A stretch of 32,682 bases of DNA. Source: an uncultured Clostridium sp. GTDB lineage: Bacteria > Bacillota > Clostridia > Clostridiales > Clostridiaceae. The translations under genes and the position numbers were made by a program. The notes under the pieces were generated by a model. The model ran no database searches. It saw only the letters and a program-made list of their open reading frames with translations, and was not told where the DNA came from. The stretch is taken from NCBI GenBank assembly GCA_902785295.1, contig CACZYK010000014.1, forward strand, positions 1 through 32,682, given 5' to 3'. Position 1 is the first letter of the stretch. Each line of letters opens with the position of its first letter. Below are positions 1-32,682 of this stretch, piece after piece.

Positions 1-80
1 AAGGACAATGCACTAGAAATAACTATTACTTTGATGAAGAAGGCAATCTTCAATCAATAGGGGGGCATATAGAAGAATAG
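1..80 (+). CDS. HNH endonuclease, 3' end duplicated across the join (partial)
   Basis: The reading frame entering the window ends in GGHIEE and a TAG stop at 78-80. It is identical to the C-terminus of the HNH protein at 32307-32663. This is the same gene seen twice because of the circular join, not a second broken copy. Confidence 0.93.
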   Translation, partial: GQCTRNNYYFDEEGNLQSIGGHIEE

Positions 81-99
81 GCGAGCATAGGGGAACCGA
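1..99. repeat. Terminal direct repeat, left copy (99 bp)
   Basis: The first 99 bases match the last 99 bases of the window (32584-32682) exactly. The repeat covers the 3' end of the HNH nuclease gene plus 19 bases beyond its stop. An odd length of 99 is typical of a de Bruijn assembler overlapping a circular path by one k-mer, so it most likely shows that the genome is complete and circular or concatemeric (unit length about 32,583 bp). A real terminal redundancy is possible but less likely at this exact size. Confidence 0.95.
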
Positions 100-1511: not shown

Positions 1512-2309
1512 ATGATAGAGAAAGTTAATCCAAGCCATCCTGATAAAGTGGCTGATAGAATAGCAGGAGCAATAGTAGATTTAGGATATAAAAAACAAGA
1601 GAATCCTAAGATAGCAGTAGAAGTGTTAATAGGACACGGTAGAGCAACAATAATAATAGAAACAAGTGTTGATTATAAACCAGAAGAAATAAGCGAGATA
1701 GTAGAAAGAATTGCAGGAACAGATATGGATATGGCATTGAAAGTAGTTCCACAAGACAGACACCTAGCAAATAATCAAGAAAAAGAAATAAGATGTGGAG
1801 ATAATGGAATATTCAAAGGTGTACCATTAACAGATAATGAGAAAGACATATCACAAATAGCAAGATACATATACAGTGAATTTCCAACAGATGGGAAATA
1901 TATAGTAACAGATGACAAACTAATTATTTGCCAAAGCAATGCAACTGAAGAACAAATAAGAAATCTATTTCCAAACTGTGATAGAGAACTAATTATAAAT
2001 CCACTAGGAGAATGGACAGGTGGAACTGATGTAGACAGTGGTGCAACAAACAGAAAGTTAGGATCAGATATGGCTCAATCAGTAACAGGTGGAGGACTAC
2101 ACGGAAAAGACTTATCAAAAGCAGATGTGTCAGTTAATATATATGCATTCCTAAAAGCCCAAGAAACAGGTAAAACTGTAGAATTGTGTTGTGCAATAGG
2201 CGATGACACAATTGATGGAAAACCATATAGCGAAATAGTAGAAATTGCCAAAAACTATATAAAGAAAATTGGTGGATTTGAAAAGTTCGCTGAATGGGGA
2301 TTATATTAA
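1512..2309 (+). CDS. metK: S-adenosylmethionine synthetase, compact phage form
   Basis: A 265-residue protein related to MetK, which makes SAM from methionine and ATP. Recognisable blocks in family order are SHPDKVADRI near the N-terminus (the HPDK substrate loop), CGDNGIFKG (counterpart of GAGDQG), DSGATNRKLGSDM (counterpart of D-G-x-T-G-R-K) and GGGLHGKDLSKADVS (counterpart of GGGAFSGKDPSKVDRS). Cellular MetK is about 380-400 residues, so this form is much shorter. It lacks the first dozen residues before HPDK and seems trimmed in the middle and C-terminal parts. It sits between a DNA methyltransferase and the small terminase, overlapping the latter by one base (TAATG). It probably supplies SAM for phage DNA methylation. 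Catalytic activity of the trimmed form is inferred, not shown. Confidence 0.88.
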   Translation: MIEKVNPSHPDKVADRIAGAIVDLGYKKQENPKIAVEVLIGHGRATIIIETSVDYKPEEISEIVERIAGTDMDMALKVVPQDRHLANNQEKEIRCGDNGIFKGVPLTDNEKDISQIARYIYSEFPTDGKYIVTDDKLIICQSNATEEQIRNLFPNCDRELIINPLGEWTGGTDVDSGATNRKLGSDMAQSVTGGGLHGKDLSKADVSVNIYAFLKAQETGKTVELCCAIGDDTIDGKPYSEIVEIAKNYIKKIGGFEKFAEWGLY

Positions 2310-2836
2310 TGAACATTACATTAACCGAAAAGCAAAAGGAACAATTAAGGCAATTAGGATTTAAAGAAGAAGAAATGACACCTGATACACTTGTAAATAT
2401 TAAGTTGTATCAACAGGCACTAAACGGAAATGTTAGTGCAGCAAATTCAATAAAAGCAATATTGAATAGCAATGAATCAGAAGCAAAAGAAGATGTCGAG
2501 GATCTAACTAAAGAAGTTGAAAAAGAAGAAAAGAAAATAATAAAACAACTTGAAGGTCTATCAAAAGAAATACTAAATATCAACCAGGAATTGATACACA
2601 ATGTAGCATTCCAATCAGTACAACTAAGACACCTATCAAACTACATTGCAGTTCATGGTGTTAAAGAAAAATATAAAAATGGGAATAACCAATGGGGTTA
2701 TAAAGACAGAACAGAAGTAAAAACATACAATAATATGATGAAAAGCTATCAAAGTTGCATGAAACAACTAAATGAATTAATAGCAAATAATTTCATTGGC
2801 AGTGGAAGTTTCGATGATGATGATTTGAGTGATTAA
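2309..2836 (+). CDS. terS: Terminase small subunit (P27-like)
   Basis: A 175-residue protein, largely helical, with a Lys/Glu-rich coiled-coil stretch at about 60-90. Its C-terminal half (LSNYIAVHGVKEKYKNG, then GYKDRTEVKTYNNMMKSYQS) has the pattern of P27-family small terminases. It would recognise the packaging site and load the large subunit. The start at ATG 2309 overlaps the metK stop as TAATG; an alternative ATG at 2294 is less natural. The acidic tail (FDDDDLSD) and immediate spacing to the large terminase support the call. Confidence 0.8.
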   Translation: MNITLTEKQKEQLRQLGFKEEEMTPDTLVNIKLYQQALNGNVSAANSIKAILNSNESEAKEDVEDLTKEVEKEEKKIIKQLEGLSKEILNINQELIHNVAFQSVQLRHLSNYIAVHGVKEKYKNGNNQWGYKDRTEVKTYNNMMKSYQSCMKQLNELIANNFIGSGSFDDDDLSD

Positions 2837-2837
2837 C

Positions 2838-4532
2838 ATGTCCTACATAGAAGAATATTACAAATGGATCCTTGAGAATCCAAATAAAGTATGTAATAAA
2901 ATAAAAAAGCAGTATGAAAGACTAGCAAATGATATACATAAAGAACAAAAAGTTACATTTCTAAATAAAACAACAAATGAAGAAGAAACACATGTATATG
3001 TATACGATGAATATAAAGGACATAGGATCATAAACTTCATTGAAAAGTATTGTAAGCAATCAAAAGGAAGATGGGCAGGTAAACCCCTAAAATTAGAGTT
3101 ATTCCAAAAGGCAATGTTAGAAGCATTGTATGGCTTTGTAGATAAAGAAACAGGGCTTAGGAAATATAAAAAAGTTATTTTTTTTGTGGCAAGAAAAAAT
3201 GGCAAATCAGTACTAGATAGTGCAATAGCCACATATATGCTAACAAAAGATAATGAAGGTGGTGCTGAAATTTATTCAGTAGCAACCAAAAGAGAACAAT
3301 CAAAGATAGTATGGGAAGAATCAAAAAGAATGATTAAGAAAAGCCCAATACTAGCAGGAAGAATCAGATGTTTAATCGGTGGAATCTATTATGATGCAAA
3401 TGATAGTTATTTCAGAGCATTAGCAAGTGATAGCAACTCGCTAGATGGTTTGAATGCTCACCTAGTAATAGCTGATGAAGTACATGCATGGAAGGATAAA
3501 AATCTTCTTGATGTTATGTACGATTCAATGAGTGCTAGAACTCAGCCAATACTACTAGAAACATCTACAATGGGAACTATAAGACAAAATGTATTTGACA
3601 TTGAATATGAATATGCAAGTCAAGTAATTGATGGAACAGTACAAGATGAAACATTACTACCAATCATTTATGAATTAGATGATGAAAAAGAATGGACTAA
3701 CGAGGAATGCTGGTATAAAGCCAATCCAGCATTAGGTAATATTAAATCGCTAAAAGACTTAAGGGAAAAAGTCGAAAGAGCAAAAGCTAATCCAATAGAA
3801 CTTGTTAATTTACTATGTAAAGACTTTAACATAAGACAAAACACAGTAAATGCTTGGTTAACTTTTGATGATTTAAATAATGAAAAGATATACAATGACT
3901 GGAAGGATACATACTGCATCGCAGGTGTCGACCTTTCAAGTACAACCGACTTAACAGCAGCAACATTGCTTGGAGTTAAAAACGGAGAAATAAGAGTAAA
4001 GCAAATGTACTGGATACCAACTAATTCACTAGAAAAGAAAGTAAAAGATGATAGAATCCCATACGATAAATGGTTAAAGGCAGGATGGCTGAGATTAAGT
4101 GGTGACTCAAAAATAGATTATCATGATGTGACACAATGGTTCTTAGATGAAGTAAGAGAAAATGACTTAAGACCTTTATGGGTTTCTTACGATTCGTGGA
4201 ATGCCGAATACTGGAAAACAGAAATGGCAGGACTAGGTTTCAACATGGTTGAGTGCCGCCAGGGAAGTCGTACGATGTCAGCTCCGATGAAAATAATGAA
4301 AGCTGACTTGATGGATAAAAAGATAAATTATAATAATAATCCAATACTAAAGTGGTGCTTAAGCAATACCACAATAAAAATGGACTCAAATGAGAATATT
4401 CAACCAGATAAAGAAAAATCAAGACAGCGAATCGATGGTGCAGTAAGCTTAATAGATGCTTATTGTATTTTTGTTGAAAAACAACAGGAATACTTAAATT
4501 ATATAAATGAGGAGGTAGGAAATGGAACTTAG
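2838..4532 (+). CDS. terL: Terminase large subunit
   Basis: A 564-residue packaging motor and headful/cos nuclease of the HK97-type Terminase_1 family. Visible features: an ATPase P-loop ARKNGKS at 118-124, a Walker B block LVIADEVH with the catalytic acid pair at 213-214, and a RNase H-like nuclease opening at GVDLSSTTD (first metal-binding Asp about 365). Length is normal for the family. ATG 2838 is preferred to a GTG at 2829 because it lies one base after the small-subunit stop and gives the typical MSYIEEYYKWILENP start. The last 11 bases overlap the portal gene. Confidence 0.95.
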   Translation: MSYIEEYYKWILENPNKVCNKIKKQYERLANDIHKEQKVTFLNKTTNEEETHVYVYDEYKGHRIINFIEKYCKQSKGRWAGKPLKLELFQKAMLEALYGFVDKETGLRKYKKVIFFVARKNGKSVLDSAIATYMLTKDNEGGAEIYSVATKREQSKIVWEESKRMIKKSPILAGRIRCLIGGIYYDANDSYFRALASDSNSLDGLNAHLVIADEVHAWKDKNLLDVMYDSMSARTQPILLETSTMGTIRQNVFDIEYEYASQVIDGTVQDETLLPIIYELDDEKEWTNEECWYKANPALGNIKSLKDLREKVERAKANPIELVNLLCKDFNIRQNTVNAWLTFDDLNNEKIYNDWKDTYCIAGVDLSSTTDLTAATLLGVKNGEIRVKQMYWIPTNSLEKKVKDDRIPYDKWLKAGWLRLSGDSKIDYHDVTQWFLDEVRENDLRPLWVSYDSWNAEYWKTEMAGLGFNMVECRQGSRTMSAPMKIMKADLMDKKINYNNNPILKWCLSNTTIKMDSNENIQPDKEKSRQRIDGAVSLIDAYCIFVEKQQEYLNYINEEVGNGT

Positions 4533-5718
4533 AAGTTTGTTCAGTAGAATATTTGGTAATGAAAAGGACACAAAAGCACCAGATACAGCTACATCATTTA
4601 AATTGCTAGATAATTATAAAAGTGTTTTTACACGATATAATGGCAAATTTGAAGATGATATAGATGTTAGGACATGTGTGGATGCAATAGCTCGAAATGC
4701 TGCTAAAATGCACCCTAAACACATTCGTAAAAGCGATGAAAAACTAGAAATACTAAATGATAATCTTTATAGAATCATAGCAAAAAAGCCAAATGAATTA
4801 CAAAATGCATATCAGTTCTATTATCAAGTTATTACTGATTTAGAACTATACAACAATGCCTACATATATGTACAAAGGGATGAAGATTATAAAGTAACAG
4901 GATTATATCCATTAAGTTATAAAACAATCCAATTATATGAATATCAAGGCAATATGTATATTCAATTTAAATTTGGAAATAGTAAAGCTAGATTTGTGGC
5001 ATATAACAACTGTATTCACTTAACTAGATTTACTAGCGATGATGGTTTATTCGGAGGATCAACAGAACCAATAATAAAAACATTATCAATAAAGCATGTA
5101 CTGGATGAAGGAATAGTAAATGCAATTAAAACCACATCATCTATCAAAGGTGTAGTAAAAAGTACACAGGCAATGCTAAAACCAGAAGATGTAAAAAAGA
5201 TGAGGGATCAATTCGTTCAAGATTTTATAGATCATAGCGATAATAGTGGAATTGGTGGACTAGATGCAACTACAACATTCACACCAGTAAACATTGATCC
5301 AAAAACAGCTGATGAAAATCAAATAAAAATATATGACAATAAAGTGCTTGGATACTTTGGAATCAATGAAAACATAATTCAAAGCAAATACAATGAAGAT
5401 GAATGGAATGCATTCTATGAAAGTGTACTAGAGCCAATAGGACTACAAATGAGTCTAGAGTTTTCAAATAAAATATTTACTCCAACTGAAAGATACTTCG
5501 GTAATGAAATAATATTTGAAAGCAATAGATTACAATATGCATCAAACAAAACAAAAATAGAACTTGTAAGATATGCAAGTAATATTATGAGTGTTAATGA
5601 ACTTCGTGAAGTATTTAATCTAACACCAATAGAAGGTGGAGAACAAATACTAATCGACCAGAATCATACAAGCACATTAGAAGATATAGGAGGTAATAGT
5701 GATGAAGAAGGAAATTAG
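4522..5718 (+). CDS. Portal protein (HK97 family)
   Basis: A 398-residue protein forming the dodecameric ring through which DNA enters the head. The N-terminal region DVRTCVDAIARNAAKMHPKHI, the central region with INENIIQSKYNEDEWNAFYE, and the size are typical of HK97-type portals. GAGGAGG lies just upstream of ATG 4522. It follows the large terminase and precedes the protease, the standard order of this module. Confidence 0.93.
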   Translation: MELRSLFSRIFGNEKDTKAPDTATSFKLLDNYKSVFTRYNGKFEDDIDVRTCVDAIARNAAKMHPKHIRKSDEKLEILNDNLYRIIAKKPNELQNAYQFYYQVITDLELYNNAYIYVQRDEDYKVTGLYPLSYKTIQLYEYQGNMYIQFKFGNSKARFVAYNNCIHLTRFTSDDGLFGGSTEPIIKTLSIKHVLDEGIVNAIKTTSSIKGVVKSTQAMLKPEDVKKMRDQFVQDFIDHSDNSGIGGLDATTTFTPVNIDPKTADENQIKIYDNKVLGYFGINENIIQSKYNEDEWNAFYESVLEPIGLQMSLEFSNKIFTPTERYFGNEIIFESNRLQYASNKTKIELVRYASNIMSVNELREVFNLTPIEGGEQILIDQNHTSTLEDIGGNSDEEGN

Positions 5719-6289
5719 AAAGTTAGACTTACAATTCAGAGCTGAAGATACTGAAGATGGAAAAATGGAAATTAAAGGATATGCAGCAGTATTTAATAGC
5801 CCTGAAACATACGGATATACTGAAGTAATTAGTGACACAGCATTTGATGAAGCTGACATGAGTGATGTTGTGCTAAGATATAATCACAATGATAGTTTTA
5901 TGGTACTTGCTAGAACTAGAAATAAAAGTCTAGAACTAAATGTAGATGAAAAAGGATTATTTATTGATGCAACATTACAAGATGACATTACAGATCATAA
6001 GAATATATTTAATGCTATAAAGAGTGGACTAATTGATAAGCAATCATTTGCATTTGTAGTAGATGAAGATGAATATGACTACGATACTGATACTAGAACT
6101 ATTACAAAAATAGGAAAAGTATTTGATGTATCAGTTGTGGATCAACCATTCTACAATGCAACAGATGTAAGTGTAGCAAGAAATCAAAACGATGAATTCA
6201 TGGAAAAGAGAAATCAATTAAGAAAAGAACATGAAGATAAAGTTTTACTAGAAGAAAAGAAAAAAGCATTACTAGAGAAATTAGGTTAA
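5702..6289 (+). CDS. Prohead (capsid maturation) protease, HK97 family
   Basis: A 195-residue serine protease of the U35/HK97 prohead protease family that would trim the capsid protein during head maturation. The start of the fold (MEIKGYAAVFNSPE), the catalytic His context RYNHN, and the catalytic Ser context KQSFAFVV in the middle of the protein are visible. ATG 5702 is 7 bases from AGGAGG; the GTG at 5699 would be too close. A Lys/Glu-rich tail ends the protein. It overlaps the portal end by 17 bases. Confidence 0.92.
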   Translation: MKKEIRKLDLQFRAEDTEDGKMEIKGYAAVFNSPETYGYTEVISDTAFDEADMSDVVLRYNHNDSFMVLARTRNKSLELNVDEKGLFIDATLQDDITDHKNIFNAIKSGLIDKQSFAFVVDEDEYDYDTDTRTITKIGKVFDVSVVDQPFYNATDVSVARNQNDEFMEKRNQLRKEHEDKVLLEEKKKALLEKLG

Positions 6290-6299
6290 TACAATGATG

Positions 6300-6346
6300 A
6301 AAAGCAACTTGGAATGGGCTGCTTTTTGTTTACTGGAATAGTAAAC
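6300..6346 (+). promoter_or_regulatory. Two hairpins between protease and capsid genes
   Basis: The 140-base gap before the capsid gene holds two inverted repeats. The first is a 7-bp stem (6300-6306 with 6320-6326, 13-base loop) running into five Ts, like a weak terminator. The second is a perfect 7-bp stem (6328-6334 with 6340-6346, GTTTACT/AGTAAAC, 5-base loop). They could partly stop transcription or protect and process the capsid mRNA so that capsid protein is made in excess. The function is inferred. Confidence 0.5.
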
Positions 6347-6429
6347 TAAATTGTTTAATAAATCCTGGAATAGGAATAATGGGAAATGAATCAGCCCTAA
6401 AGAGAACAAATAAAAATAAGGAGGTCACA

Positions 6430-7602
6430 ATGACAAGACTAGAAGAAATCGAAGCTCGTAAAGTTGAAATCAAATCAGAAATTGAAGCAACTGAAAATGA
6501 AACTGAATTAGAAGAACTAAATAAAGAAGTAGATGCTTTAAAAGAAGAAGAAGATGCAATTAAAGAGCAAGAAGAAACTGAAGAAGAAGTTAAATCTCTA
6601 GAAAAGAATTTAACTAAAGCAAATAAAATTGAAAGAGAGGAAAAGAAAATGGAAGAAAAAAGATTTGATTTATCAAGCAAGGAATATCGTTCAGCTTGGG
6701 CAAAAAAAGTAATGGGCTTATCAGAAGATAAGTTTACAGAAGATGAAATTAGAGCATTAGGAGATGCAGTAACTACTACAGCAACTACATTCGTAGCTAG
6801 CGATGCAAATACTCAAGGAATTAATAATGGTGGTTTATTTATTCCTACAAGTGTAAGAGAAGAATTATTAGAATTAATTTCTAAAGAATCACCAATATTT
6901 AGAGATATCAGAAAGTTAGCAGTTCAAGGAAATGTTGACTTACCATATCTATTCGCAGCTGATGATGCAGCATGGTATGCTGAATTAACTGATACTAAAA
7001 ATGAAGGTATCGAATTTAAGAATTTACAATTAACAGGATGGGAATTAGCTAAAGATATAGTTATTACATGGAAGTTAGAAGAAATGGCAGTAGACTCATT
7101 TATCGACTTCATTGTAGATGAATTATATAACAAAATGGGTAAAGCTCTTATCAATGCAGTTATCTATGGTGATGGAAGTTCAAAACCTACAGGTATCACA
7201 AATGGTTTAACTCCAGTAACAACAGGAAATAATGGAATTGAAAGAGTAATTAACACTTATGCATCATTAAGTGAAGATGCAAGAATCGGTGCTAAAGTAT
7301 ATATCTCAACTGAAACTAACTTAGACATAATTTCATATAAAGATGGAAATAACAATTATCCATATTTAAGTGGAATTCCTGCAGTAAGTGGATTTACAGT
7401 AGAAGTTGATCCATATCTACAAAATAAAGATATCGTAGCAGGAAATTTAAGATACTATATCTTAAATGAAAATACACCAGTAAGATTAGACAGAGAATCT
7501 TCAGTTAAAGGTAGAAAAGTAACTTATGGTGCTTATGCTATTTATGATGGTAAAGGAAAACCAGGGGCATTTGCTTTAGGTAGACCTGCAGCATCAGTAT
7601 AA
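6430..7602 (+). CDS. Major capsid protein (HK97 fold) with N-terminal delta/scaffold domain
   Basis: A 390-residue protein. Residues 1-75 are a Glu/Lys-rich coiled coil, as in the delta (scaffold) domain that the prohead protease removes. The body then shows the HK97-fold features GGLFIPTSVREELLELI, an internal E-loop/P-domain region, and NTYASLSEDARIGAKVYIS near the A-domain. Start ATG 6430 has an ideal AAGGAGG site; an upstream ATG at 6379 has none. Codon use shifts toward more T-ending codons than in the neighbours, fitting high expression. Confidence 0.94.
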   Translation: MTRLEEIEARKVEIKSEIEATENETELEELNKEVDALKEEEDAIKEQEETEEEVKSLEKNLTKANKIEREEKKMEEKRFDLSSKEYRSAWAKKVMGLSEDKFTEDEIRALGDAVTTTATTFVASDANTQGINNGGLFIPTSVREELLELISKESPIFRDIRKLAVQGNVDLPYLFAADDAAWYAELTDTKNEGIEFKNLQLTGWELAKDIVITWKLEEMAVDSFIDFIVDELYNKMGKALINAVIYGDGSSKPTGITNGLTPVTTGNNGIERVINTYASLSEDARIGAKVYISTETNLDIISYKDGNNNYPYLSGIPAVSGFTVEVDPYLQNKDIVAGNLRYYILNENTPVRLDRESSVKGRKVTYGAYAIYDGKGKPGAFALGRPAASV

Positions 7603-16502: not shown

Positions 16503-16745
16503 ATGAAAGAATGGATTAAAGCAGCAGGCATCAGAGCAATAAAAACTGTATGTCAAACTGCAATTGCAACAATAGGAACAACAACAATGTTTAGTGAAGT
16601 AGATTGGAGAGTAGTAGCATCTGCAAGTTTATTAGCAGGTATATTAAGTTTACTAACAAGTTTAGCAGGTCTACCTGAACTAGAAGAAAAACAAACAAAT
16701 TTTAATACTGAAGATTTAGAAAGTATTGATACAGAAGGTGAGTAA
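16503..16745 (+). CDS. Holin (r1t-like)
   Basis: An 80-residue protein with the r1t holin pattern: an N-terminal amphipathic stretch (WIKAAGIRAIKTVCQTAIAT), two membrane segments (about 17-30 and 37-57), and an acidic C-terminal tail. It would form the membrane lesion that releases the endolysin. It follows the 28-residue peptide by two bases and leads directly into the endolysin gene. Confidence 0.85.
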   Translation: MKEWIKAAGIRAIKTVCQTAIATIGTTTMFSEVDWRVVASASLLAGILSLLTSLAGLPELEEKQTNFNTEDLESIDTEGE

Positions 16746-16746
16746 T

Positions 16747-17379
16747 ATGGAATTTAAACCAAGAACAAAAGCACCAAGTGAAACAAATAAGTTTTATATA
16801 AAAGCAGGAAAGGGTGGGTACGACAGAGCAAAGGAAATCAACAAAAAAACTCACTCTTGCCTTTTTAATTGCTGTGGATTAGTTCACGGTCGATTTCTTG
16901 AATCACAAAACCAAACTAATTATAAAAAGTATGATAAGTTATGCACAGGAAATGCTGAAAGTTATTATGGATATAAGAAAGATGGATATAAAAGAAGCAA
17001 AACACCAAAAGTAGGTGCAATTGTATGTTGGAAAGGTAAAGGCAAATTAGCTGGTCATGTTGCTTTTATTGAAAAAGTATATTCTAATAATGATATATTA
17101 ACTTCTAATAGTGCTTACAAACATAGTAGATTTTATATGAAGAAATATCTTAAATCTAAAAAGTATTATTTAGGTGATAATTATGAATGGCAGGGATTTA
17201 TATTAAATCCATGTGATTTTAGTATAAAAACTGGCAAAGAATACTATATAGTTAAAAAGGGTGATACCCTTACTAAAATAGCAAGAAAATTTAAAACAAC
17301 AATTGTTCAACTTGCTAAATGGAACAAAATTAAAGATGCAGATAAAATTTATGCAGGGCAAAAATTAAGAGTAAAATAG
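16747..17379 (+). CDS. Endolysin: CHAP-like peptidase/amidase with C-terminal LysM
   Basis: A 210-residue cell wall hydrolase. The catalytic part has Cys42 in FNCCGLVHG and His104 in GHVAFIEKV, the Cys-His arrangement of NlpC/P60- and CHAP-type papain-fold enzymes; NlpC/P60 is a real alternative given the CCGLV context. Residues 166-210 (YYIVKKGDTLTKIARKF to YAGQKLRVK) are one LysM peptidoglycan-binding repeat. No signal peptide is seen, fitting holin-dependent release. ATG 16747 sits beside GAAGGTGAG; the longer frame from 16726 has no good site. Confidence 0.9.
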   Translation: MEFKPRTKAPSETNKFYIKAGKGGYDRAKEINKKTHSCLFNCCGLVHGRFLESQNQTNYKKYDKLCTGNAESYYGYKKDGYKRSKTPKVGAIVCWKGKGKLAGHVAFIEKVYSNNDILTSNSAYKHSRFYMKKYLKSKKYYLGDNYEWQGFILNPCDFSIKTGKEYYIVKKGDTLTKIARKFKTTIVQLAKWNKIKDADKIYAGQKLRVK

Positions 17380-17387
17380 GAGGAAAA

Positions 17388-17681
17388 ATGACAGAACAAA
17401 TTATAATCTCTTTAATAACAGTTGCAATTCCTTCTTTAACTACAATAATAACTTCAATAATAGCAAAAAGATATAATTATATGCATAATGCTAAACAATC
17501 AATTCTTCAATTAATAGTAGAAGATAAAATAAGAGTTATAGAAGGTGGAATACCAGAAAATAAACAAAATATACTTAAAGAATCTGATGTATACTTTAGT
17601 AATAATGGAAATAGTTATGTGCATGAAAAGGTAGATAATTATTTAAAATGGTATTCATCAATAATGAAAAGTAAAAAATAA
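17388..17681 (+). CDS. Small membrane-anchored protein downstream of endolysin
   Basis: A 97-residue protein with one N-terminal membrane segment (IIISLITVAIPSLTTIITSIIA) and a soluble, charged C-terminal domain. An AGGAGG site precedes ATG 17388. It is cotranscribed with the lysis genes, so a role in lysis timing is possible, but I do not recognise a family. Confidence 0.7.
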   Translation: MTEQIIISLITVAIPSLTTIITSIIAKRYNYMHNAKQSILQLIVEDKIRVIEGGIPENKQNILKESDVYFSNNGNSYVHEKVDNYLKWYSSIMKSKK

Positions 17682-17763: not shown

Positions 17764-18957
17764 ATGTTTAAAGATTATCACAAATATTTATCTACAAGTC
17801 TTAAAGTGTATCTATTTGTATTACTAATAACATTTATACTAAAATTAGTAGGATTAAATTATTTTGGAATTAATGCAAATGATTTATTGATGAAGATATA
17901 TTTTTATATATCAAAATACACCATAGATTATTTCATACAATATTTTTTGTTATATGTAAACTTTCATTTAATTAAAAGTATAACATTACAAAAATATAAA
18001 ATTGATTTTGAAACAGTTTTAATACCTACAATTAATATAATAATAACAATTTTAATGTTTTTATTTAATTGCCAACAATTTTATCAAATCTTTAATATGT
18101 TGTTATTATTTGTTTATTTTTTAATTAAAAAAGTAAAAATTACTAGAATAATTAAAGTATTTGTTATTAATATTATTATTCAATTTTTAAGTAGTATAGT
18201 AAGAGATTATGATATACAAAATTATAAGATTTTATATAATCTAATAATGAATATAGATTACTATATTATGTTAATAATATGGTACAAAATAGAGAAACAA
18301 GGAGGTGTAGAAAAATGGGTGAATTTCCAGGAAGTTGGTTCTTATTTGCAGATGAAAGCAAACTTAAAGAACTTGCCGATAAAATTGCAGAAAAGCTTGC
18401 ATAGTTTCAAACAACTCGATAAGAAAAGCAAAATAAGTATAAGTCTTTATTTTGCTTTTAGTTTGATATGGAATGTATCAACCGTTTTATTAGTATTATT
18501 TGTAGCAAGAATGAATCATACATTAATTGAATGTATTTTTATATTAACTTCTTTTTGGTTATCTAAAAAAGCATTTGGTAGACCATTTCATTTAAAAAAT
18601 ATGGCACATTGTTTTGTTGTATCTAATATTACATATTATGTATTAAATAGAATAACATTACCATTACATATAAGTATATTTGTGCCAATATTATTAGGTG
18701 TAGGATTATCATATGTAACTTCTAAATTGGTAAAGAAAATGTATAAACCATTATATAGAGGAATGCCAAAAGATTTATTTGATGAAACTATACTTAAAGT
18801 AGAAGATAAAAATAGTTTGAAATATAATATATGTTATGAATATTATATAGAAAAGAAAATGGCTATTAATTTATCAATTAAATATCATTATAGTGAAGCT
18901 GGTATAAGAAAAATATTAAAAATTGTAAATAAAAAGATAAAGGAACTCAATAAATGA
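17764..18957 (+). CDS. Two-part membrane protein: unknown multi-pass half plus AgrB-like half with C-terminal HTH-like segment
   Basis: A 397-residue ORF, apparently two proteins joined. Residues 1-178 contain about five membrane segments and are Ile/Phe/Tyr-rich; I cannot assign them. Residues 179-215 are a hydrophilic linker overlapping a peptide ORF in another frame. Residues 216-330 look like AgrB, the membrane cysteine peptidase that trims AgrD pheromone precursors: His276 and Cys283 in RPFHLKNMAHC keep the H-x6-C spacing of the S. aureus AgrB catalytic pair, inside a similar membrane topology. Residues 340-397 (YRGMPKDLFDE to the end) are cytosolic and basic, with a pattern like a sigma-4/HTH helix pair (LSIKYHYSEAGIRKILKIV). 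The second half could instead begin at ATG 18352, which has no ribosome binding site of its own and might be coupled to the peptide ORF. A strong terminator follows immediately. Confidence 0.6.
   Translation: MFKDYHKYLSTSLKVYLFVLLITFILKLVGLNYFGINANDLLMKIYFYISKYTIDYFIQYFLLYVNFHLIKSITLQKYKIDFETVLIPTINIIITILMFLFNCQQFYQIFNMLLLFVYFLIKKVKITRIIKVFVINIIIQFLSSIVRDYDIQNYKILYNLIMNIDYYIMLIIWYKIEKQGGVEKWVNFQEVGSYLQMKANLKNLPIKLQKSLHSFKQLDKKSKISISLYFAFSLIWNVSTVLLVLFVARMNHTLIECIFILTSFWLSKKAFGRPFHLKNMAHCFVVSNITYYVLNRITLPLHISIFVPILLGVGLSYVTSKLVKKMYKPLYRGMPKDLFDETILKVEDKNSLKYNICYEYYIEKKMAINLSIKYHYSEAGIRKILKIVNKKIKELNK
18315..18404 (+). CDS. Nested 29-aa peptide ORF, candidate AgrD-like precursor
   Basis: An ORF in a different frame inside the membrane-protein gene. 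It has an ideal AAGGAGGTG site 7 bases before ATG 18315 and ends at TAG 18402-18404. The product starts MGEFPGSWFLF and continues as ADESKLKELADKIAEKLA, an amphipathic, charged helix. AgrD precursors have a Cys or Ser followed by four mostly hydrophobic residues, then a charged tail cut off by AgrB. Here Ser7-Trp-Phe-Leu-Phe11 followed by Ala-Asp-Glu fits that plan, giving a possible five-residue lactone ring (some staphylococcal pheromones use Ser). Unlike usual AgrD it lacks a long N-terminal amphipathic leader. It could also be an unrelated small helical protein. Confidence 0.55.
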   Translation: MGEFPGSWFLFADESKLKELADKIAEKLA

Positions 18958-18973
18958 GTTCCTCTTTTTTTTT
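18941..18973 (+). terminator. Rho-independent terminator after the AgrB-like ORF
   Basis: A perfect 9-bp stem (AGGAACTCA 18941-18949, TGAGTTCCT 18955-18963, 5-base loop) followed by C and nine Ts. The upstream arm overlaps the last codons of the AgrB-like ORF. It insulates the lysis and membrane-protein genes from the accessory block that follows. Confidence 0.93.
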
Positions 18974-19128: not shown

Positions 19129-19641
19129 ATGTATAACACACAGTATTATAACAATCAAGCTAACCTAGACAGGGTAAACAATCAAATTGCAGAACTAGAA
19201 AGAATCAAGATGCAAATGCAACAACCAATATCGCAGCCAACAAATCTAACACAAAACTTCCAACTAGCACCAACCAATAGAGATTTAATTAAATATGCTA
19301 GTTCAATAGAAGATGTGCAAAAAGAAATGGTAGTAGGGGATACTCCATACTTTAGTAAAGACATGAGTGTGGTATGGATCAAGAACACAAAAGGGGAAAT
19401 AAAAACATATGAACTAAATGAAATAGTTCCAAAAGATGCTAAAGACATACAAATAGAACTATTACAAAATGAAATTAATGAATTAAAGAAAGAGATGAAA
19501 AAGTATGATGAACATATTACAAATGTTGTTGAATCAGAAGATACAACAAATACCAAATGGTATGATGAAACAACTGGAGAACCAATTAAAGAGAATAAGC
19601 CCACAGGCATTCAAAGAATATCAAGAAGCAAAACAAAATAA
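19129..19641 (+). CDS. Accessory protein with Gln/Asn-rich N-terminus and coiled coil
   Basis: A 170-residue protein starting at an ideal TTTAGGAGGAAAT-ATG. Residues 1-60 are Gln/Asn-rich and probably flexible. A folded middle (KEMVVGDTPYFSKDMSVVWI, KGEIKTYELNEIV) follows, then a coiled coil at 105-130. I do not recognise an assigned function. Its last 137 bases overlap the next ORF in another frame. The position after the lysis genes, in a block of similar small proteins, suggests an accessory virion or host-interaction role. Confidence 0.7.
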   Translation: MYNTQYYNNQANLDRVNNQIAELERIKMQMQQPISQPTNLTQNFQLAPTNRDLIKYASSIEDVQKEMVVGDTPYFSKDMSVVWIKNTKGEIKTYELNEIVPKDAKDIQIELLQNEINELKKEMKKYDEHITNVVESEDTTNTKWYDETTGEPIKENKPTGIQRISRSKTK

Positions 19642-19773: not shown

Positions 19774-20661
19774 ATGAACGGAAATTCAACAGGAATAGTT
19801 CCAACAATAGACTTAGCCACTAATAATGGTGGAGGGTTTGCATATCCATATCCAGTAATGGGTGGATTTGGTGGAACAGGATTTGGTGGATTTGGTGGAG
19901 ATTCGGCAATATGGCTAATCGTGCTATTAGCATTGATATGGGGGAACAATGGTAATGGCAATGGATTCTTCGGTGGTAATGGTGGATTCGATAACGGATA
20001 TGCTTGGTTAAGTAATGGACAAAAAGACATTATGAGTCAAACAAGTGATGGATTTAATTCATTACATTTAAGCAATAACATTGAGGGAATAAGAGATTCA
20101 GTAAATAGTTTATCAAATCAACTTTGTTCATGCTGTGGTGATATAACAAGTGCTATTAATACTACTGCATATAATGCTGAAATAGCAGCAGCTAATAGAC
20201 AAATGGCAAATATGAATCAAAACTTTGCATTAAGCCAACAATTAGCAAATTGTTGTTGTGAAAATAGATTAGCAACAGCTAACCTAACAGCAACTGTACT
20301 TGCAGAAAATTGTGCTGATAGAGCAGCATTAGCTGATTCAACTCAAAGAATTATTACAAATGCAACTGATAATACAAGAGCTGTGTTAGACAAACTTTGT
20401 CAATTAGAACTAGATCAAAAGAATGAAAAAATTGTAGATTTACAAAGAGAAGTCTTAATGAAAGATTTAGCTGCAAGTCAAGTAGCACAAACAGCAGAAT
20501 TAAGAGCTAACAATGCTACAACTGCTAATCAATTAATAGCTGAACTTCGTGCATGCCCAATCCCAGCTCAAGCAGTATATGGAAATACACCTGTATTTCA
20601 ATGCCAACCAAGTTATGGTTGTGGTTGCAATGGAAACTTCGCAACAAATCAATTATTTTAA
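19774..20661 (+). CDS. Gly-rich, single-membrane-segment accessory protein with Cys clusters
   Basis: A 295-residue protein with AAAGGAGGAA before ATG 19774. Residues 20-45 and 57-75 are Gly/Phe/Asn-rich and flank one strong hydrophobic segment (SAIWLIVLLALIWG, about 44-57). The rest (about 80-260) is an Ala/Asn/Gln-rich helical region with Cys pairs (CSCCG, NCCCE), and the end is again Cys/Gly-rich (YGCGCNGN). This architecture is familiar from phages of gut Bacillota, but I know of no assigned function. It may be membrane- or virion-associated. Confidence 0.75.
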   Translation: MNGNSTGIVPTIDLATNNGGGFAYPYPVMGGFGGTGFGGFGGDSAIWLIVLLALIWGNNGNGNGFFGGNGGFDNGYAWLSNGQKDIMSQTSDGFNSLHLSNNIEGIRDSVNSLSNQLCSCCGDITSAINTTAYNAEIAAANRQMANMNQNFALSQQLANCCCENRLATANLTATVLAENCADRAALADSTQRIITNATDNTRAVLDKLCQLELDQKNEKIVDLQREVLMKDLAASQVAQTAELRANNATTANQLIAELRACPIPAQAVYGNTPVFQCQPSYGCGCNGNFATNQLF

Positions 20662-29983: not shown

Positions 29984-30385
29984 ATGGAACATTTAAATAT
30001 AAGTAAAGCTAAAATACAAAGGGAACAACTTGTAAATGAATTAGAGTTATATCTAGAACAAAAAGAAATCAATTTTATTAGAACTCAACCAAAAAGCCCA
30101 ATAATGAAGGAAGTAATAGAAGGCAAAAGCGATGGATTCAGAATAAGCGATAAATACACACACTATATAATCAAGGATCAAAAGTTCGATGAAAAGATAT
30201 TTGCACTTCAAAAAGAAATCAATGCATTAGAAAAATACATAATAAATGAGATGGAAAGAATCAATAGAGCAGGTGGAGATTATCTAGTGAGATACTATAG
30301 AGATGTAGAAAGATACTCATGGGAGAAAATAGCAAGATTAACCCACTATTCGATAAGACAATGTCATAACCTATACAAAAAATAA
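29984..30385 (+). CDS. ArpU/RinA-like late transcription regulator
   Basis: A 133-residue protein ending in RYYRDVERYSWEKIARLTHY and SIRQCHNLYKK, a sigma-4-like HTH (about 103-133) as in ArpU, RinA and related late activators. The middle is helical with IFALQKEINALEKYI. An ideal AGGAGG site precedes ATG 29984. It is the last early gene, and a promoter starts 4 bases after its stop, so it most likely turns on the late genes from 30389 onward, through the join into the packaging and structural genes. Confidence 0.8.
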   Translation: MEHLNISKAKIQREQLVNELELYLEQKEINFIRTQPKSPIMKEVIEGKSDGFRISDKYTHYIIKDQKFDEKIFALQKEINALEKYIINEMERINRAGGDYLVRYYRDVERYSWEKIARLTHYSIRQCHNLYKK

Positions 30386-32306: not shown

Positions 32307-32663
32307 ATGAGCTACGGCATAAGAAAAGACTTCTACAATAGCAAGGCATGGCAGGATGTAAGAAAGACAATATGGTTAAAGCAAAACCTACTATGTAATA
32401 GATGTCATAGACCTGTATATGTAGATGGTATATCAAAATACATTCCTAAAGGTCAAAGAAGAACAGGAATAGTACATCATAAGATATATCTAAATGAATC
32501 AAACATAAATGACAAGAACATAACACTAGGTGAAGATAATCTTGAAGGTTTATGTAAAGAATGTCATGAGAAAGAACACACTAAAGGACAATGCACTAGA
32601 AATAACTATTACTTTGATGAAGAAGGCAATCTTCAATCAATAGGGGGGCATATAGAAGAATAG
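32307..32663 (+). CDS. HNH endonuclease
   Basis: A 118-residue enzyme with Cys30-x2-Cys33, HH at 57-58 (VHHKI), Asn78 and Cys83-x2-Cys86-His87 with His91, the full zinc-stabilised HNH layout. HNH proteins beside the terminase genes of HK97-type phages help the terminase cut at cos. Here it lies just before the join, upstream of the packaging genes but separated from them by the methyltransferase and SAM synthetase genes. The gene lies complete here; its last 80 bases reappear at the window start. Confidence 0.95.
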   Translation: MSYGIRKDFYNSKAWQDVRKTIWLKQNLLCNRCHRPVYVDGISKYIPKGQRRTGIVHHKIYLNESNINDKNITLGEDNLEGLCKECHEKEHTKGQCTRNNYYFDEEGNLQSIGGHIEE

Positions 32664-32682
32664 GCGAGCATAGGGGAACCGA
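32584..32682. repeat. Terminal direct repeat, right copy (99 bp)
   Basis: Identical to bases 1-99. Together the two copies close the map into a circle; one copy should be removed when coordinates of the unit genome are used. Confidence 0.95.

What the first reader, a model, noticed from the sequence alone, without database searches (positions are those of the whole stretch)
18315..18404. Peptide ORF nested out of frame, shaped like an AgrD precursor
A perfect ribosome binding site 7 bases from ATG drives a 29-codon ORF inside the membrane-protein gene. Ser7 followed by Trp-Phe-Leu-Phe and then an acidic, helical tail matches the ring-plus-tail plan of AgrD, with a lactone instead of a thiolactone. 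It sits exactly at the seam between the two halves of the overlapping ORF, where the other frame reads as unstructured linker. Peptide and likely processing enzyme in one locus suggests a signalling system between infected cells, or one that interferes with the host's own agr.
Basis: partly seen in the sequence, partly recalled or inferred. Interest (0 to 1): 0.85.

Follow-up and report, generated by a model that had tools for sequence, protein, structure and literature searches.

The report
Phage pheromone gene nested in receptor–protease
A gut-bacterium virus carries a tiny gene for a probable chemical signal, hidden in a second reading frame inside the gene for a membrane protein that appears to make and perhaps also sense that signal; the double-coded arrangement is kept in dozens of relatives, so it looks like a compact quorum-sensing device packed into one stretch of DNA.

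Summary
The finding is real. ORF 17764-18957 (397 aa) joins a hydrophobic membrane half, an AgrB processing enzyme (Pfam match over cut-off; His276 and Cys283 present) and a weakly HTH-like tail. The 29-codon ORF 18315-18404 lies out of frame at the seam. In 35 of 36 fused loci (25 phage, 10 of 11 chromosomal) the same frame encodes M-x(1-7)-S-x-x-x-F-[A/G]-helical tail; the third frame is open in none of the 35. Both coding frames are conserved beyond synonymous-shuffle nulls. The one locus without the peptide has also lost both catalytic residues. Six chromosomal relatives have the same parts unfused and in the same order, with a Cys or Ser ring. The membrane half varies with the pheromone end of the peptide, AgrB with its tail. 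AgrC-type kinases follow 6 of 11 chromosomal fused genes; I saw none beside the phage genes. Best reading: an agr-type lactone pheromone with its own enzyme and likely receptor, carried by rumen phages, mostly without detected integrases, in the lysis region. Peptide plus enzyme is well supported; receptor role, HTH output and purpose are inferred. Nothing was tested experimentally.

The parts
17764..18957 (+). Fused ORF, 397 aa: membrane half + AgrB + C-terminal tail
   Evidence: one open frame in 35 of 36 fused loci over the part held (L030 has one in-frame TGA; 5 of the 36 are cut by a contig end)
17764..18303 (+). N-terminal half, hypervariable after about residue 36; proposed pheromone receptor
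   Evidence: six hydropathy peaks, several barely over the threshold used; profile match to separate genes in unfused relatives, hhalign 95.0%, E 3.9e-8; varies with the pheromone end of the peptide; no convincing Pfam family
18300..18307 (+). Shine-Dalgarno AGGAGGTG of the nested peptide
   Evidence: SD pattern before the nested start in 32 of 35 loci
18315..18404 (+). Nested AgrD-like precursor, 29 aa, frame +2
18315..18332 (+). Leader / exocyclic part MGEFPG
   Evidence: 2-8 residues with Met in 35 loci; no long amphipathic leader
18333..18347 (+). Presumed lactone ring Ser-Trp-Phe-Leu-Phe
   Evidence: S-x-x-x-F-[A/G] in 35 of 35 loci
18348..18401 (+). C-terminal amphipathic tail of the precursor, presumably cut off by AgrB
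   Evidence: helical moment and correlation with AgrB
18409..18756 (+). AgrB domain
   Evidence: PF04647 25.1 bits, gathering 23; 25 of 26 aligned members match at E up to 0.1, best 5.7e-10
18589..18591 (+). His276 codon, catalytic position of AgrB
   Evidence: H in 35 of 36 fused loci; catalytic role recalled from AgrB
18610..18612 (+). Cys283 codon, catalytic position of AgrB (His-x6-Cys)
   Evidence: C in 35 of 36; the exception L069 lacks His, Cys and the peptide
18757..18957 (+). C-terminal tail, sigma-region-4-like HTH (weak); proposed output
   Evidence: Mor 9, Mga HTH 7, antitermination Q 4 of 24 members, all below cut-off, beside unrelated families such as Tri3 in 6; no shuffled control was run
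18941..18963 (+). Intrinsic terminator over the stop codon of the fused ORF
   Evidence: 2 found (the two strands of one hairpin), 0.1 expected
16503..17681 (+). Upstream lysis region: r1t-type holin 16503-16745, CHAP+LysM endolysin 16726-17379, small ORF 17388-17681 with one hydrophobic stretch
   Evidence: similar small genes upstream in other phages by my reading

Best explanation
The locus is a compact agr-type peptide signalling gene. One mRNA encodes (i) a membrane protein whose C-terminal part is an AgrB enzyme and (ii), from an internal ribosome site in another frame, a 29-residue AgrD-like precursor. AgrB would remove the helical tail after Phe11 and close an ester between Ser7 and Phe11, giving a five-residue lactone (SWFLF in the window) with a short N-terminal part that may need no second protease. 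The N-terminal half is most likely the receptor: a hypervariable hydrophobic protein that in relatives without the fusion is a separate gene next to agrD and that varies with the leader-ring end of the peptide. In bacterial chromosomes the signal probably reaches an adjacent AgrC-type kinase and/or LytTR regulator where these are present. In the phage loci I saw neither beside the gene; there the HTH-like tail of the same protein is the best candidate output, acting on phage late or lysis genes, so that infected cells could time lysis by pheromone level. SHOWN by sequence: both frames conserved beyond the nulls, AgrB identity, unfused relatives with matching parts, a kinase or regulator beside some chromosomal copies, lysis-region placement. 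INFERRED: cyclisation, export, receptor role, HTH output, lysis timing. My probabilities: nested AgrD-like pheromone processed by the fused AgrB 0.92; N-half is its receptor 0.65; phage output through the HTH tail 0.4; lysis timing as the purpose 0.3.
For: AgrB half. Nested peptide in 35 of 36 fused loci. Peptide-frame core identity 0.628 in 27 loci against 0.304 (sd 0.014, highest of 300: 0.351) when the fused protein is kept and synonymous codons are redrawn; fused frame 0.531 against 0.348 (sd 0.013, highest 0.387) when the peptide is kept, and only 7% of such redraws leave the fused frame open. L069: peptide, His and Cys lost together. Unfused relatives L070 and L101-L105 with agrD between the membrane-protein gene (only its end seen in L101) and agrB, and an HTH-like ORF overlapping the end of agrB; homology of the membrane proteins. 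Kinase HATPase_c_5 6.6e-17 after the fused gene in L014, LytTR 7.8e-12 in L013. Mantel tests on 32 loci: N-half with leader+ring r 0.289, p 0.0002; N-half with AgrB r -0.052; AgrB with precursor tail r 0.718, p 0.0002. Five-residue rings, Ser lactones and a three-part AgrD are known for agr (PMC12312760, passages).
Against: No transcription, translation or mass-spectrometry data. No AgrD family model matches any of 10 peptides tried. The N-half shows no similarity to the membrane part of one full-length AgrC, from L065, or to Brevibacillus phage gp44, each a single-sequence comparison. L065 and L066 have a full AgrC-like protein with its own membrane part beside the fused gene, so the N-half need not be the receptor. 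The ring alone correlates only weakly with the N-half (r 0.089, p 0.055); the signal is in the leader. Neighbouring DNA is inherited together, so the Mantel pattern could come from recombination near the ring rather than from binding. The codon nulls ignore shared descent. HTH matches are all below curated cut-offs, mixed with unrelated families, absent from NCBIfam as a pattern, without a shuffled control, and hhalign against the unfused HTH ORFs is weak (4%). In L067, L068 and L069 I saw no kinase or regulator beside the gene.
Confidence: 0.78

Rival explanations
1. The phage makes the pheromone to manipulate bacteria (its host or neighbours) that carry the chromosomal version, either triggering or blocking their agr response; the phage protein needs no output of its own.
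For: Chromosomal loci of Bacilli MAGs and their relatives carry the same system, some with an AgrC-type kinase or LytTR regulator; N-half types are interleaved between phage and chromosome (7 changes of the label on the tree, at least 3 forced; shuffled mean 9.5, 24 of 500 shuffles as low), so phage and bacteria may share specificities; I saw no kinase or regulator beside the phage genes.
Against: The phages keep the hypervariable N-half and the HTH-like tail, which a pure sender would not need. The window's own assembly has no second AgrB over the cut-off. True hosts are unknown.
Confidence: 0.25
2. The membrane half is not a receptor but a partner for export, immunity or substrate handling; sensing is done elsewhere.
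For: Full AgrC-like proteins with their own membrane part sit beside the fused gene in L065 and L066; no sequence link of the N-half to the L065 AgrC.
Against: In L014, L064, L080 and L081 the neighbouring kinase-like ORF starts with a single short hydrophobic segment by my reading, leaving the N-half as the obvious sensor; it is hypervariable and its divergence is unrelated to that of AgrB.
Confidence: 0.25
3. The SD at 18300 starts a separate AgrB from GTG 18319 and the peptide frame is incidental.
For: GTG 18319 is in the AgrB frame, 11 nt after AGGAGGTG.
Against: An in-frame start codon 4-10 nt after the peptide's ATG exists in 7 of 27 loci only, while the peptide start is kept; peptide frame conserved beyond the null and open in 35 of 35.
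Confidence: 0.04
4. The cyclic peptide is an antimicrobial or toxin rather than a signal.
For: Hydrophobic aromatic ring and net positive amphipathic tail in 33 of 35 loci.
Against: The tail should be cut off; variation is coupled to a membrane protein; some chromosomal relatives sit with an agr-type kinase or regulator.
Confidence: 0.06

Closest known systems
agr quorum sensing (agrBDCA)
   Same: AgrB with His-x6-Cys, precursor with a five-residue ring between a short exocyclic part and a charged tail, variable pheromone; GHKL kinase and LytTR regulator beside some chromosomal relatives (agr features from PMC12312760, passages)
   Different: agrD is nested out of frame inside a fused membrane-protein/AgrB/HTH-like gene; leader of 2-8 residues instead of 24-25; no kinase or regulator seen beside the phage genes
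Enterococcus fsr (fsrABDC, GBAP)
   Same: Ser lactone; pheromone gene fsrD shares the fsrB region. PMC7028047 (passages; [quoted passage not shown] the review PMC3673130 (passages) says it lies within fsrB in a different frame; the primary 2006 paper is not held
   Different: Here the overlap is out of frame, upstream of the AgrB domain, with a receptor-like half and HTH-like tail fused; ring of five, not nine
phiCDHM1 agr3 cassette and phages Abouo, Davies, Emery (PMC3901668, passages, where they are called Paenibacillus phages; the Abouo record says Brevibacillus)
   Same: agr genes in a phage; the phiCDHM1 cassette lies near the endolysin gene; Abouo gp44-gp45-gp46 is membrane protein, AgrB, small peptide
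   Different: Separate genes in phages with integrases; gp44 shows no profile match to our N-half, gp45 only the region of the AgrB motif
Arbitrium and VP882 phage signalling (PMC7790227, passages)
   Same: Phage-borne receptor for a peptide or small-molecule signal
   Different: Transcription-factor receptors and a lysis-lysogeny decision; here a membrane processing enzyme and phages mostly without detected integrases

Membership tests
AgrB (PF04647) | Match to curated family model over cut-off | tested here: met
   Window half 25.1 bits, cut-off 23; 25 of 26 aligned members at E up to 0.1. The whole 397-aa query gave no match; I take this to be HMMER's filters
AgrB (PF04647) | His and Cys seven residues apart | tested here: met
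   35 of 36 fused loci, window included; catalytic role recalled
AgrD | Match to an AgrD family model | tested here: not met
   No AgrD model matches the window or nine relatives in Pfam or NCBIfam
AgrD | Ring of five starting with Cys or Ser | tested here: met
   Ser in 35 of 35 fused loci with the peptide; Cys or Ser in 6 unfused loci; that a ring forms is inferred
AgrD | N-terminal amphipathic leader of about 24 residues | tested here: not met
   Leader 2-8 residues including Met
AgrD | Charged C-terminal tail recognised by AgrB | tested here: inconclusive
   Charged amphipathic tail that varies with AgrB; recognition itself not testable here
agr system | AgrC-type kinase and AgrA-type regulator | tested here: inconclusive
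   None seen by reading ORFs beside the window gene and phage relatives (no family search was run there). Chromosomal: Pfam confirms a kinase beside L014 and L065 and a LytTR regulator beside L013; by reading, kinase-like ORFs beside L064, L066, L080, L081 and regulator-like ORFs beside L065, L066; L079 not resolved; none seen beside L067-L069
agr system | Cyclic peptide made and sensed | not testable with these tools
   needs mass spectrometry and reporters
AgrC sensor domain | Sequence kinship of the N-half to AgrC | tested here: inconclusive
   No match to one AgrC from L065; no convincing Pfam family
Sigma-70 region 4 HTH | Match over curated cut-off | tested here: not met
   Sigma70_r4 16.1 bits, cut-off 24.1, on the L070 ORF; other HTH families below cut-off; profile hits a sigma factor (by reading) at E 1.9e-4 and 1.4e-5

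The most novel reading that the evidence does not exclude
A one-gene quorum-sensing machine: a single polypeptide is receptor, pheromone-making protease and DNA-binding (sigma-4-like) output, and its cognate pheromone is written in another reading frame of the same codons at the joint between receptor and protease. Phages without integrases use it to set lysis by the density of infected cells, and swap receptor-pheromone modules with bacterial chromosomes.
Probability: 0.3. Interest if true: 0.96.

Novelty: new variant of a known kind. Interest (0 to 1): 0.86.

Why it matters
It would be an agr-type pheromone encoded out of frame inside the gene of its own processing enzyme, with unfused, overlapping and fused states all visible among relatives, so the origin of an overlapping gene pair can be followed. 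It puts peptide signalling into phages that mostly lack detected integrases, where the question becomes lysis timing or host manipulation rather than lysogeny. In the listings of ten full-text searches (for example 25 of 99 papers shown) and the passages I read, I saw no report of it; subscription papers are mostly outside that library.

Tried and rejected
Separate AgrB from GTG 18319: rejected. N-half as a duplicated AgrB: hhalign 0.1%. N-half as homologue of Abouo gp44: 0.1%. Named phages: no match in INPHARED for the window AgrB half or the L031 fused protein; the L031 tail gave one hit at E 8, taken as chance. PDB: nothing better than E 0.47. Rfam: no match at gathering score in the window. 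Tail against the window's own late-regulator-like ORF 29984-30385: no match by hhalign. Weak matches in other genomes of the window's neighbourhood: L007 and L008 (E 3.5e-4, 3.9e-4), of which L007 covers permease-like ORFs by my reading and L008 was not resolved; L052 and L053 (E 0.007, 0.008), not followed. The second AgrB match in the assembly (C11, 19.9 bits, below cut-off, 71-codon frame) was not followed.

Rows dropped before counts: duplicate loci of the same contigs (L015, L016, L018, L019, L035, L036, L039, L041, L042, L045); L038, identical to L037 in the fused protein; L106, the same locus as L013; L027, L029, L033, L034, L048, L049, which do not cover the seam. still list L038; one search did not show the peptide of L028, L030 and L046, which one search found. 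Mantel tests leave out L017, L022 and L025 (5' end missing). L079-L081 are not in A10 or A13. In one search identity, a stop facing a stop counts as identical.

Full report
OBSERVATION. The downstream half of the long ORF is AgrB: Pfam PF04647 25.1 bits against a cut-off of 23; 25 of 26 aligned members match, best 5.7e-10; it has the His-x6-Cys pair (His276, Cys283).

RELATIVES. The window's AgrB half has no match in the INPHARED phages. Four scans of IMG/VR contigs and one of GTDB genomes gave, after removal of duplicates and fragments, 26 further loci that cover the seam. All 27, window included, have the fused frame through the seam and the nested peptide in the same frame. In one, L030, the fused frame carries a TGA directly before the Cys codon. 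Two of the 27, L013 and L014, lie in bacterial chromosomes by my reading of their neighbours. Searches of 243 genomes of the L014 family, 385 of its order and 12 of its genus had matches in 8, 8 and 5, overlapping sets; from these I fetched nine more chromosomal fused loci, L064-L069 and L079-L081, of which eight keep the peptide. Total: 36 fused loci, 35 with the peptide; 25 phage or viral-contig, 11 chromosomal. Searches in the window's own taxonomic neighbourhood (147, 118 and 291 genomes, different profiles) gave only weak matches outside the window's assembly.

SELECTION ON BOTH FRAMES. In 27 loci the 23-codon core of the peptide has mean pairwise identity 0.628; with the fused protein held fixed and synonymous codons redrawn it is 0.304 (sd 0.014, highest of 300 draws 0.351). 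In reverse, with the peptide fixed, the fused frame is 0.348 (sd 0.013, highest 0.387) against 0.531 observed, and stays open in 7% of redraws. These nulls do not model shared descent; the third frame, which shares descent, is open in 0 of 35 loci and has identity 0.378, against 0.557 (peptide) and 0.448 (fused) in the same 35. In L069 the AgrB His and Cys are replaced and the nested peptide is gone.

THE PRECURSOR. In 35 loci: leader of 2-8 residues with Met, ring S-x-x-x-F (SWFIF 7, SWFFF 5, SWFLF 3, SWLIF 3 and 14 further forms), then Ala (33) or Gly (2) and an amphipathic tail, net positive in 33, 0 in one and -1 in the window. It differs from AgrD in lacking the long amphipathic leader and matches no AgrD model in 10 peptides tried. 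Passages of PMC12312760 give the AgrD plan (leader 24-25, AIP 7-9, charged tail 14-15) and known Ser lactones.

UNFUSED RELATIVES. A search of 338 genomes of the G430 family with the L070 AgrB had matches in 12. L070 and five more loci, L101-L105, have separate genes: membrane protein (L101 is cut at the contig start, so only its end is seen), agrD, agrB, and a small HTH-like ORF overlapping the end of agrB; a LytTR-like regulator follows in L070, L101 and L102 by my reading. Rings: CWLWF, SWLWF, CLFWF, SFLWW, CWLWW, SLLWW. In L104 and L105 the membrane-protein frame runs on over much of agrD, an overlapping state between separate and fused. The separate membrane protein is homologous to our N-half (hhalign 95.0%, E 3.9e-8, 171 columns). 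I read flanking chromosomal genes as wecA/mraY-like, cspA-like, hpf-like and secA-like from their sequences; these names come from no search. The direction separate-to-fused is an inference; the AgrB tree puts chromosomal rows near the chosen outgroup L069, whose long branch makes rooting unsure.

OUTPUT. L014 has a GHKL kinase (HATPase_c_5 6.6e-17) and L013 a LytTR regulator (7.8e-12) directly after the fused gene; L065 has a full AgrC (1.5e-13). L064, L066, L080 and L081 show kinase-like ORFs by my reading, so 6 of 11 chromosomal fused genes have a kinase beside them; L079 was not resolved and in L067-L069 I saw neither kinase nor regulator. In the phage loci I saw neither, by reading; no kinase family search was run on them. 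The tail of about 66 residues is HTH-like at sub-threshold level: Mor 9, Mga 7, antitermination Q 4 of 24 members in Pfam, beside unrelated families (Tri3 6, DUF7668 3, Rad10 2); in PHROGs an unannotated family in 10 (6.4e-6), a late activator in 4 and a Q-like family in 2; NCBIfam showed no such pattern. The A10 profile hits the last part of what I read as a sigma factor in G861 (E 1.9e-4, 12 genomes searched) and a lone 85-residue gene in G476 (E 2.5e-4, 385 genomes searched, so about 0.1 expected by chance). A tail-only profile gives 1.4e-5 and 4.7e-8 for these among 4181 ORFs of the fetched loci, which were fetched because of those hits. The G476 gene lies in a phage-like region upstream of a homologue of window ORF 19774-20661 (E 1.4e-7), as the fused gene does.

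RECEPTOR. On 32 loci N-half divergence is unrelated to AgrB divergence (r -0.052), related to leader+ring (r 0.289, p 0.0002; last three leader residues 0.32, ring alone 0.089, p 0.055), while AgrB is related to the precursor tail (r 0.718, p 0.0002) and not clearly to leader+ring (0.135, p 0.096). On trees the phage/chromosome label needs 3 changes for the AgrB half (shuffled mean 9.6, 0 of 500 as low) and 7 for the N-half (shuffled mean 9.5 for the phage label, 24 of 500 as low), at least 3 of them forced by well supported branches. This is what swapping of receptor-pheromone modules would give; because leader codons adjoin the N-half and tail codons adjoin AgrB, plain recombination near the ring could give it too.

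THE PHAGE. The window is G000:C14:1-32682, with a 99-bp direct terminal repeat and 30.4% GC; four sampled stretches of the assembly have 25.5-30.9%. No tyrosine recombinase match lies on contig 14, and 1 of 13 viral records tested has one (L001's); no serine recombinase match on contig 14 or in 12 viral records. These are part of the viral contigs found, records may be fragments, and repressors were not sought. The fused gene follows holin and endolysin genes and ends in a terminator. The next gene downstream (homologue of window ORF 19129-19641 or its L004 counterpart, function unknown) is found in all 22 phage loci with at least 500 nt of downstream sequence, window included; 3 of 25 end within 50 nt. 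That the samples are from rumen is recalled for the IMG/VR contigs; only the titles of L011 (yak omasum) and L014 (dairy cattle duodenum) name a ruminant source.

LITERATURE. phiCDHM1 and three further phages carry separate agr genes (PMC3901668, passages; Abouo annotation). In Enterococcus fsr the pheromone gene shares the fsrB region; two papers disagree on the frame (passages) and the primary paper is not held. In passages of PMC5454873 the frame is not mentioned. Reviews PMC7790227, PMC12988980 and PMC13389391 (passages) mention no such arrangement in what I saw. I therefore file this as a new variant of the agr kind, not a new kind.

Noticed in passing
L030, just before the AgrB Cys codon, near 5220 (same contig as L041): In-frame TGA directly before the AgrB Cys codon although the nested peptide and the rest of the fused frame are open; error, decay or recoding not decided.
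   Followed up: partly
L069 (G440:C5): Fused relative that kept membrane half and HTH-like tail but lost AgrB His, Cys and the peptide: a possible receiver-only form.
   Followed up: partly
L083 reverse strand, 4621-4878 of the reversed sequence (G476:C2): Lone 85-residue sigma-4-like HTH gene in a phage-like region, upstream of a homologue of window ORF 19774-20661, at the place where other phages have the fused gene.
   Followed up: partly
L105, reversed sequence 2754-4276 and 4954-6476: Tandem near-identical duplication of the unfused membrane protein-agrD-agrB-HTH set.
   Followed up: no
L065 and L066: Besides the fused gene, a full AgrC-like ORF and a second, canonical-looking AgrB-like ORF on the other strand (by reading).
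   Followed up: no
window 1512-2309: ORF resembling S-adenosylmethionine synthetase by reading (PHROG 1569, no function given), next to a methylase-like ORF.
   Followed up: no
window 1-99 and 32584-32682: 99-bp direct terminal repeat: the contig is probably a complete circular or circularly permuted phage genome.
   Followed up: partly
L070:1952-2047: The Cys-ring AgrD-like peptide weakly matches the EAGR box model (0.0027 and 0.0045, below cut-off), probably by aromatic/glycine composition.
   Followed up: no
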